A model generated the notes under the pieces. That model had not been told where the DNA came from and did not search any database. It saw nothing but the letters and a program-made list of their open reading frames with translations. A DNA stretch of 64,000 bases. Origin: Bifidobacterium breve DSM 20213 = JCM 1192. Its GTDB lineage: Bacteria > Actinomycetota > Actinomycetes > Actinomycetales > Bifidobacteriaceae. Location: the NCBI RefSeq assembly GCF_001025175.1, contig NZ_AP012324.1, positions 1,798,001 to 1,862,000 of the forward strand, written 5' to 3'. Shown piece by piece: positions 32,550 through 34,334 of the stretch. The position numbers and the translations under genes are program-made. Every line of letters starts with the position of its first letter. Positions within the stretch are counted from its first letter, which is position 1.

Positions 32550-33224
32550 ATGCGCGTTATTTTTAACGAGGAGCTGAAGCAGGTTGCCGATGACCTCGAC
32601 CGCATGGCGCAAGATGTGCGCAAAGCGATCAAAGGAGCTGGGGATGCTCTGCTGAATCAGGACGTTGAAGCCGCTCAAACCGTGATTGATGGCGACATCG
32701 AAATCGATGCTTTGGAGTCCTCCGTTCTCGACCAGTGCGTGAAGCTGCTCGCCAAGCAGAATCCGGTGGCCACCGATCTGCGCGTGGTGGTTTCCACCAT
32801 GCGTCTGGCCTCCACATTCGAGCGTATGGGCGATTTGGCCCGTCACGTGGCCGAAGCCGCACGCCGCACGTACCCGGCTGCCGCAATCCCGGAATCCGCT
32901 CAACCGGTATTTGCCGACATGGTCGCGTTCCTGGACAACACCGCCGATCAGCTGGTGGCCATGCTCACCGACCGCGATGCCAAGACCGCTGAGGCCATCA
33001 TTCTGGCCGATGACAAGCTGGACGAGCTGCATCACCGGACCTTCGACCTGGCGCTGTCCGACGAGATCACTCGTCAGCAGACCGTAGACATCGTGCTGCT
33101 GGGCCGCTTCCTGGAGCGCCTTGGCGATCACGCCGTGTCCGCCGCCCGCCGTGTGGTCTACATCGTCTCCGGCTTCGACCCCACCAAGGAGCCGACCCGC
33201 GACGAAGGCACCGACATCGACTGA
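32550..33224 (+). CDS. phoU: Phosphate transport system regulator PhoU
   Basis: The 224-residue all-helical protein carries two PhoU repeats with the metal-binding pattern E/D-x3-D-x3-E/D (for example MRLASTFERMGDLARHV and GRFLERLGDHAVSA). PhoU links the Pst phosphate transporter with the phosphate-sensing kinase and represses it when phosphate is plentiful. The ATG follows GGAGAA. It is divergent from the SenX3-like protein, the usual bifidobacterial partner, though pst genes are not in view. Confidence 0.93.
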   Translation: MRVIFNEELKQVADDLDRMAQDVRKAIKGAGDALLNQDVEAAQTVIDGDIEIDALESSVLDQCVKLLAKQNPVATDLRVVVSTMRLASTFERMGDLARHVAEAARRTYPAAAIPESAQPVFADMVAFLDNTADQLVAMLTDRDAKTAEAIILADDKLDELHHRTFDLALSDEITRQQTVDIVLLGRFLERLGDHAVSAARRVVYIVSGFDPTKEPTRDEGTDID

Positions 33225-33266: not shown

Positions 33267-33306
33267 AAAAGCGGCGATCCGGCTACGGCTGGACGCCGTT
33301 TTTTTG
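33267..33306 (+). terminator. phoU terminator
   Basis: AGCGGCGATCCGGC and GCTGGACGCCG fold into an interrupted stem followed by TTTTTTTG. Confidence 0.8.
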
Positions 33307-33334: not shown

Positions 33335-33493
33335 CACCACGTAGCAAATGTCTCACCACGTAGTGAATCTCCCACCACGATGTCAGCCGAATTTTGCATT
33401 TCGCGGAATTCCGCCGTTTTGGGACACCACGTGGTGGGCATTTCACAACGTCGTGGGTATTTCACCTCGCGGTGGGGAGTTCGCTTCGTGGTG
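33335..33493. repeat. 19-bp phased convergent repeat array
   Basis: CACCACG occurs at 33335, 33354 and 33373, exactly 19 bp apart. Its inverse CGTGGTG (or CGTCGTG, CGCGGTG) occurs at 33430, 33449, 33468 and 33487, again exactly 19 bp apart. A perfect CACCACGTGGTG sits at 33425-33436. The 12-bp spacers are also related (GTGAAAT-type on both sides). The two arrays face each other across a unique AT-richer 50-bp centre. No reading frame explains it. The remaining bases of 33225-33593 are two terminators. Confidence 0.9.
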
Positions 33494-33535: not shown

Positions 33536-33564
33536 GGGAGTCGCACGATAATTGTGCGACTCCC
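33536..33564 (-). terminator. gpmA terminator
   Basis: GGGAGTCGCAC and GTGCGACTCCC form an 11-bp stem with a 7-nt loop. On the minus strand it is followed by TTTTGC. Confidence 0.88.
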
Positions 33565-33593: not shown

Positions 33594-34334
33594 TCACTCC
33601 TGGCCCTGAGCAGCGACAGCGGCGGCACCGGCGGCGGCAGCCTCCGGGTCCAGATACTCACCACGCGGCTTGATCGGCTTGAAGTTCTCGTCCAGCTCGT
33701 AGAGCAGCGGGATAGCGGTCGGGATGTTGACCTTGGCGATCTCATCCTCGGACAGGTTGTCCAGCATCTTGACGATGGCACGCAGGCTGTTGCCGTGAGC
33801 AGCAATCAACACGGTCTTACCAGCGCGCAGCTCCGGCTCGATGGCGGACTCGAAGTACGGCTTCACACGCTCAACAACGTTGGCCAGGCACTCGGCTTCC
33901 GGAACCGGATCGCCGGCGTAGCGCGGGTCGTTATTCTGGGCGTACTGGTCGTTCGGGTCGATCTCGGGCGGCGGAGTGGCGTAGGAACGGCGCCACAGCA
34001 TGAACTTCTCGTCACCGTACTCTTCGCGAATCTCGGTCTTGTTCTTGCCCTGCAGAGCGCCGTAGTGACGCTCGTTGAGACGCCAATCACGCTGAACCGG
34101 AATCCACAGGCGATCTGCGGCATCCAGAGCGATGTTGGCAGTGTTGATGGCGCGACGCAGCAGGGAGGTGAACACGATGTCCGGAAGGACGTTCTTCTCC
34201 TTGAGCAGCTCGCCGCCACGCTTGGCTTCGGCTTCACCCTGCTCGGTCAGCGGTACGTCGACCCAGCCGGTGAACTGGTTGGTTTTATTCCATGCGCTCT
34301 GTCCATGACGGAGCAGTACTAATTTATAAGTCAT
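33594..34334 (-). CDS. gpmA: Phosphoglycerate mutase, 2,3-bisphosphoglycerate-dependent
   Basis: GpmA interconverts 3- and 2-phosphoglycerate in the cytoplasm in the lower half of the bifid shunt. Hallmarks in the 246-residue protein are [12 protein letters not shown] with phospho-His10, [11 protein letters not shown], and [11 protein letters not shown] with the second His. The start at 34334 gives the conserved [11 protein letters not shown]-terminus; the frame extends ten codons further without support. The C-terminal tail after GEYLDPEA is Ala-rich. It ends at a strong terminator beyond which lies the 19-bp array. Confidence 0.95.

What the first reader, a model, noticed from the sequence alone, without database searches (positions are those of the whole stretch)
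33335..33493. Two 19-bp phased arrays facing each other downstream of phoU
Three CACCACG sites at exact 19-bp steps are followed, after a 50-bp centre, by four inverted CGTGGTG-type sites also at exact 19-bp steps, with CACCACGTGGTG at the inner edge of the right array. The intervening 12 bp are related on both sides (GTGAAAT near each site). Exact phase on both arms is unlikely by chance. It could be a cooperative protein-binding array, a nucleoid anchoring site, an iteron-like element or a large RNA structure. It lies between the phoU and gpmA terminators, where nothing needs it. I know of no description.
Basis: seen in the sequence. Interest (0 to 1): 0.78.

Follow-up and report, generated by a model that had tools for sequence, protein, structure and literature searches.

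The report
Phased repeat arrays paired with nuclease
The odd DNA pattern is one copy of an apparently undescribed family of scattered repeat elements in Bifidobacterium, whose repeat "words" differ between species but agree across each genome, and which sit beside a fast-changing DNA-cutting enzyme that probably recognises them.

Summary
Window 33335-33493 holds 3 + 4 inverted sites at exact 19-bp steps around a conserved core. It is not a lone array: the own genome (by size, from memory, B. breve) has 7 such elements, and the family is Bifidobacterium-wide (40 of 112 genomes). In 80 elements from 14 genomes, spacing is 19 bp in 244 of 276 steps and orientation is 436:0. Units are genome-specific: at the same phoU-gpmA locus B. 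longum has an element with different units. At 27 orthologous locus pairs, non-unit DNA keeps locus memory (P=0.0025) but units do not (P=0.80), which points to a trans-acting factor of diverging specificity. Best candidate: a 315-350-aa protein with a C-terminal Vsr/EDxHD homing-endonuclease-like domain. In 10 of 10 array genomes examined its gene lies in the aspS locus with an element at its 3' end; it is 49-64% identical between species where neighbours are 86-98%. Three ~30%-identical paralogs, one in B. breve, lie beside arrays with other units; two of these share the core. It works like a REPIN-RAYT system but is not one. Unproven: binding, cleavage, and B. breve's cognate enzyme for this element. 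RNA, parS and RAYT readings were tested and rejected.

The parts
33335..33346 (-). Left array unit 3 (outermost), CACCACGTAGCA
   Evidence: anchor -69
33354..33365 (-). Left array unit 2, CACCACGTAGTG
   Evidence: anchor -50
33373..33384 (-). Left array unit 1 (inner, degenerate), CACCACGATGTC
   Evidence: anchor -31
33385..33424 (+). Core region with left gap, shared by the whole family; its hallmark TTTCGCGGAATTCCGCCGTTTT is 33399-33420
33425..33436 (+). Right array unit 1, CACCACGTGGTG
   Evidence: anchor +24
33444..33455 (+). Right array unit 2, CACAACGTCGTG
   Evidence: anchor +43
33463..33474 (+). Right array unit 3, CACCTCGCGGTG
   Evidence: anchor +62
33482..33493 (+). Right array unit 4 (outermost, degenerate), CGCTTCGTGGTG
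   Evidence: anchor +81
32550..33224 (+). phoU, left neighbour (not part of the element)
33271..33306 (+). phoU terminator-like hairpin with T tract, left of the element
   Evidence: sequence
33536..33564 (-). gpmA terminator-like hairpin, right of the element
   Evidence: inverted repeat I2
33594..34334 (-). gpmA, right neighbour, convergent (not part of the element)

Best explanation
The feature is one copy of a non-autonomous, dispersed DNA element of about 160 bp: a conserved core flanked by two outward-facing inverted arrays of roughly 13-bp units at 19-bp pitch. It is the cis half of a two-part system. The likely trans half is a fast-evolving protein of 315-350 aa with a C-terminal Vsr/EDxHD homing-endonuclease-like catalytic domain. 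Inferred steps: its N-terminal region binds the arm units cooperatively along each arm, and the catalytic domain acts at or near the core. As the enzyme's specificity drifts, units at all loci are re-tuned to it (by selection, or by enzyme-driven copying of elements), which gives each species its own unit. Shown here: the cis family, its architecture, genome-specific units at orthologous loci, and linkage of enzyme genes to elements. Not shown: binding, cutting, copying, or any benefit to the host.
For: Architecture: 80 elements from 14 genomes, 19-bp steps 244/276, orientation 436:0, right gap 24 in 73/80, left gap 31-32 in 69/80 or 42 in 6/80. Units at 27 orthologous pairs of different unit type are no more alike than with loci shuffled (P=0.80), while non-unit DNA is (P=0.0025); within-genome unit identity 0.82 against 0.59 between types. 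Enzyme gene in the aspS locus with an element overlapping or within about 115 bp of its 3' end in G017, G089, G105, G104, G110, G085, G066, G092, G124 and B. aesculapii. Enzyme 49-64% identical to the B. longum copy while aspS and the next genes are 86-98%; pairs with the same unit type 91-100% for rousetti/callitrichos and G104/G092. D208, E219, D221, H225, D235 and K238 are invariant in 12 homologs, paralogs included. C-terminal fold match to I-Bth0305I 3r3p (prob 1.00, TMt 0.73). Paralogs of about 30% identity in B. breve, G005 and G104 each lie beside arrays with a different unit; B. breve has four copies of that second type in 864 kb, one beside the paralog, with related cores.
Against: No binding or cleavage was tested. 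The ten aspS-locus cases are one shared ancestral locus, so independent associations number about four. G017 keeps well-conserved arrays although its enzyme gene is frameshifted. No known DNA-binding domain was recognised in the N-terminal region. Foldseek E-values are weak (about 0.1). Cores beside the G104 paralog are only weakly similar. Five of 11 B. longum elements share one gap sequence, so some whole-element copying or conversion also happens.
Confidence: 0.6

Rival explanations
1. The arrays are bound by another, unidentified species-specific DNA-binding protein; the nuclease gene is merely a neighbour that shares the aspS locus by descent.
For: The aspS linkage is one inherited locus; B. 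breve has 7 elements but no enzyme there; G017's enzyme gene is broken while its arrays stay conserved.
Against: Three distant paralogs at other loci are also beside arrays, each with its own unit; the enzyme evolves far faster than its neighbours, as a factor of drifting specificity should.
Confidence: 0.2
2. The arrays are chromosome-organising or transcription-insulating sites between convergent genes, bound by a nucleoid protein, in the way of Noc, RacA or ParB sites.
For: Convergent gaps 39/84 against 22/239 (p=2e-12), divergent avoided; none of 18 elements in B. breve and B. longum lies in the terminus-proximal quarter.
Against: G110 has elements near mid-contig; loci come and go (3 of 19 at phoU-gpmA); parS is separate; species-specific units are unusual for such systems.
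Confidence: 0.1
3. The element acts as RNA: a long hairpin or bidirectional terminator at 3' ends.
For: Strong predicted folds on both strands (z about -6); location at 3' ends.
Against: No G-U preference among arm mismatches (63 against 71); fixed 19-bp phase with a one-turn jump; core palindrome often broken; units shared across loci; no Rfam family.
Confidence: 0.05
4. The elements are inert miniature transposon (MITE or REP-type) copies spread in bursts in each species.
For: Multi-copy, extragenic, gain and loss at loci, clusters in G110, shared gap sequences in B. longum.
Against: Inert copies would keep old units at orthologous loci; they do not. No RAYT in the own genome; no transposase linked.
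Confidence: 0.05

Closest known systems
REPIN-RAYT systems (PMC3116915, PMC8049555)
   Same: Dispersed extragenic elements of two inverted repeat parts around a spacer; lineage-specific repeat sequence; a single-copy, vertically inherited trans gene of nuclease/transposase type with elements beside it
   Different: Units are 13-bp near-palindromes in 19-bp phased arrays instead of a GTAG-tagged hairpin; the enzyme is Vsr/EDxHD-like instead of HUH tyrosine; no RAYT in the own genome
EDxHD homing endonucleases (I-Bth0305I; PMC3943268)
   Same: C-terminal catalytic fold and conserved acidic/His residues; I-Bth0305I dimerises on a target of nearly 60 bp (PMC3943268)
   Different: Not in an intron, intein or phage; the gene stays at a chromosomal locus and is associated with dispersed non-coding arrays
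GTAG/CGTC REP repeats (PMC3733652) and BIMEs
   Same: Extragenic, mostly beside tandem or convergent genes
   Different: No GTAG or CGTC tag and no loop; Bifidobacterium is not mentioned in that survey
parS-ParB, RacA/Noc sites and plasmid iteron or centromere arrays (from memory)
   Same: Phased or repeated sites bound cooperatively
   Different: Canonical parS is present separately; unit sequence varies by species; many changing loci; no rep or par gene beside them

Membership tests
REPIN-RAYT | Y1 (HUH) tyrosine transposase RAYT in the genome | tested here: not met
   PF01797: no hit in G000, only 7 of 112 genus genomes
REPIN-RAYT | REP hairpin with GTAG tag | tested here: not met
   Unit consensus has no loop and no conserved GTAG
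REPIN-RAYT | Two inverted repeats around a spacer, dispersed and extragenic | tested here: met
   Inverted arrays around a core, intergenic
REPIN-RAYT | Vertically inherited trans gene with elements beside it | tested here: met
   A different enzyme class, but at the same aspS locus in 10 genomes
EDxHD/Vsr-like endonuclease | Catalytic fold and residues | tested here: met
   3r3p match prob 1.00, TMt 0.73; PF04480 above its cut-off in 4 of 5 aspS-type proteins, PF18741 below its cut-off; invariant D, ExDGDxH, D, K
EDxHD/Vsr-like homing endonuclease | Homing: cleaves the empty allele and copies its own gene | not testable with these tools
   Needs cleavage and mobility assays
MITE / IS derivative | Terminal inverted repeats, target duplication and a matching transposase | tested here: inconclusive
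   Clean empty gaps exist; insertion edges could not be resolved; no transposase identified
parS centromere | TGTTTCACGTGAAACA-like 16-mer | tested here: not met
   Three canonical parS near oriC, none in the arrays
Structured RNA of Rfam | Match to a known family | tested here: not met
   None

The most novel reading that the evidence does not exclude
A class of chromosomal repeat system not described before: a homing-endonuclease relative kept at one locus maintains, and co-evolves with, a population of dispersed phased arrays, so that a change in one protein's specificity re-writes target words at many unlinked loci. Several independent enzyme/array lineages coexist in the genus, and two unit families in one B. 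breve genome.
Probability: 0.5. Interest if true: 0.88.

Novelty: new variant of a known kind. Interest (0 to 1): 0.8.

Why it matters
It gives a natural record of protein-DNA specificity change: the same loci in sister species carry the same element with different recognition words, and the candidate enzyme changes with them. That makes co-evolution of a DNA-binding enzyme with many dispersed targets directly testable in common gut bacteria. It would also add a second enzyme class, besides RAYT transposases, that maintains non-coding repeat populations in bacterial chromosomes. The elements favour gaps between convergent genes, so they also bear on how 3' regions of Bifidobacterium genomes are annotated.

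Tried and rejected
RNA structure as the selected property (no G-U excess; no Rfam match). parS/ParB. RAYT. A chromosome-positioning role: an origin bias seen in the first, incomplete list weakened when complete lists were made, and G110 contradicts it. Regulon: neighbours are unrelated, largely housekeeping genes. Whole-element gene conversion as the main cause of unit homogeneity, although some occurs in B. longum. Decay of B. breve arrays after enzyme loss: unit identity 0.75 is low, but equal to G110 and B. callitrichos, which have the enzyme, so not decisive. Systematic terminators between genes and elements: my simple finder was too insensitive. Phage or plasmid origin: no copies of arrays or enzyme in the plasmid, phage or IMG/VR collections. 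The pattern had a 20-bp step by my mistake and was rerun correctly. Some other cores found by pattern have co-axial single hairpins or unrelated arms; these were set aside. Literature searches found no description.

Full report
WHAT IS THERE. The window has three left units and four inverted right units at exact 19-bp steps, well above resampled sequence (43/49 against at most 33). Units are 12-14-bp near-palindromes and the centre contains CGCGGAATTCCGCCGTTTT. Neighbours are phoU and gpmA, convergent, with a terminator-like hairpin on each side of the element.

IT IS A DISPERSED FAMILY. A DNA search of the own genome found further copies; the sequence profile R1 gives seven, at 87.7, 251.4, 352.5, 667.9, 1585.5, 1831.4 (this one) and 1903.6 kb. 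The core pattern is found in 26 of 112 genus genomes with no control hits, and R1 in 40 of 112. Outside the genus there is one weak partial hit among 248 genomes sampled across the order. An array pattern scanned over 84,980 species hits only Bifidobacterium (65 stretches: aesculapii, hapali, stellenboschense, callitrichos, rousetti, panos, platyrrhinorum, simiiventris). No copies were found in plasmids, phages or IMG/VR.

ARCHITECTURE. In 80 elements from 14 genomes: 19-bp steps 244/276 (20 bp in 28), orientation outward 436:0, core-to-right gap 24 in 73/80, core-to-left gap 31-32 in 69/80 and 42 in 6/80, that is plus about one helical turn. The consensus core is AATTGGCGGAATTCCGCCGTTTTG with a TTTT tract further left. 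Arm mismatches show no G-U preference, so the constraint is on DNA. No unit pairs of family quality occur outside elements in 879 kb of the own genome. Elements prefer convergent gaps (39/84 against 22/239 intergenic spaces of at least 200 bp, p=2e-12) and avoid divergent ones (5/84 against 64/239, p=2e-5).

UNITS BELONG TO THE GENOME, NOT TO THE LOCUS. Units: B. breve CACNACGTGGTGGG; B. longum ACCGCCCCATGGG; callitrichos/rousetti ACCGCGYSATGGG; aesculapii/stellenboschense ACCGCACCATGGG; G005/G017/G089/G092 CCTACAYCATGGG; G104 CCTACACCGTGGG; G110 ACCGCGCGGTGG. At phoU-gpmA, B. breve and B. longum have the element at the same place with different units; G092 also has one; 16 other resolved gaps have none. 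One locus (L015, L181, L101, L185) holds elements in four species with four unit types. For 27 orthologous pairs of different unit type, non-unit DNA is more alike than with loci shuffled within genomes (P=0.0025) while units are not (P=0.80). Within genomes units are 0.82 alike and between types 0.59; non-unit DNA is 0.64 and 0.57. Whole-element conversion alone does not give this pattern; selection for a genome-wide binding specificity can. An exception that fits: G000 1585.5 kb carries B. longum-type units, nearly identical to the B. longum element at the same locus, as expected of recent transfer.

CANDIDATE TRANS FACTOR. At the aspS locus of B. aesculapii a gene lies between two elements. 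It has weak Pfam matches to MTES_1575 and DUF559 (for homologs). The same gene is present between aspS and the 'MTLEIL' gene, with an element overlapping or within about 115 bp of its 3' end, in ten array genomes. Three of these regions (G066, G092, G124) had been chosen only for containing close groups of elements. In the own genome that locus is about 210 bp wide, with neither gene nor element. The protein is 49-64% identical to the B. longum copy, while aspS is 94-98% and the next genes mostly 86-98% identical to the B. aesculapii ones. Pairs sharing a unit type are 91-100% identical for rousetti/callitrichos and G104/G092 and 71-79% for aesculapii/stellenboschense. The B. longum model (pLDDT 77, pTM 0.75) matches the I-Bth0305I catalytic domain (3r3p, prob 1.00, TMt 0.73) and NGO0050. 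E-values are weak (0.1-1), so the match rests on probability and TM-score together with the conserved residues. Viral matches are DUF559/Vsr nucleases, by the catalytic domain.

INDEPENDENT SUPPORT FROM PARALOGS. Homologs of about 30% identity in the own genome (1,864,106-1,865,170), in G005 and in G104 are each beside arrays with other units: GTGGGACAACATG, TGTCACGCGACG and TGGCGTGGCA. In the own genome the GTGGGACAACATG family has four copies in 864 kb (363.7, 432.3, 1863.6, 2193.2 kb), one beside the enzyme, with cores resembling the family core (P 0.002-0.02 each; G005 0.002; G104 weak, 0.04-0.10). So a second enzyme lineage has a second array type in the same B. breve genome.

HOW IT MOST LIKELY WORKS. 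Shown: cis family, phase, concerted unit turnover, gene linkage, intact catalytic residues. Inferred: the enzyme binds the unit arrays and acts at the core, which maintains or copies the elements, much as RAYTs maintain REPINs (PMC8049555). Whether the system is selfish, or domesticated for a role at convergent gaps, is open.

WEAK POINTS. There is no biochemistry. The aspS association is one ancestral locus plus three paralog loci. The enzyme cognate to the window's own unit type was not found in the 38% of the genome that was read. G017 has a broken enzyme gene with good arrays.

Noticed in passing
G000:C1 363.7, 432.3, 1863.6, 2193.2 kb (L126, L127, L151, L157): A second dispersed family in the own genome: paired inverted GTGGGACAACATG units around a related core, one copy beside a Vsr-like nuclease paralog.
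   Followed up: partly
L178 (G000:C1:1585452) and L170 (G085:C1:1581846): A B. breve element with B. longum-type units and near-identical flanking DNA, suggesting recent transfer between the two species.
   Followed up: partly
L285 8840-9853 (G017): The aspS-locus nuclease gene is split by a frameshift while arrays in that genome stay well conserved.
   Followed up: no
L299-L303 (G110, 3.16 Mb contig): Elements occur in tight clusters of 2-4 within a few hundred bases, unlike in the other genomes.
   Followed up: no
L038, L048-L051, L115, L116: Similar GGCGGAATTCCGCC cores flanked by single, co-axial inverted arms of unrelated sequence; may be further lineages of the same system or terminators.
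   Followed up: partly
L030, L118, L119 (G089, G036): Cores flanked by widely spaced copies of TTGCC..GG-like words; possibly other array types without a nuclease nearby.
   Followed up: no
G000:C1 2264285, 2266486, 2267216: Three exact canonical parS sites beside oriC in the own genome.
   Followed up: yes
G000:C1 and G085:C1, whole chromosomes: None of the 18 elements of B. breve and B. longum lies in the terminus-proximal quarter of the chromosome; G110 does not follow this.
   Followed up: partly
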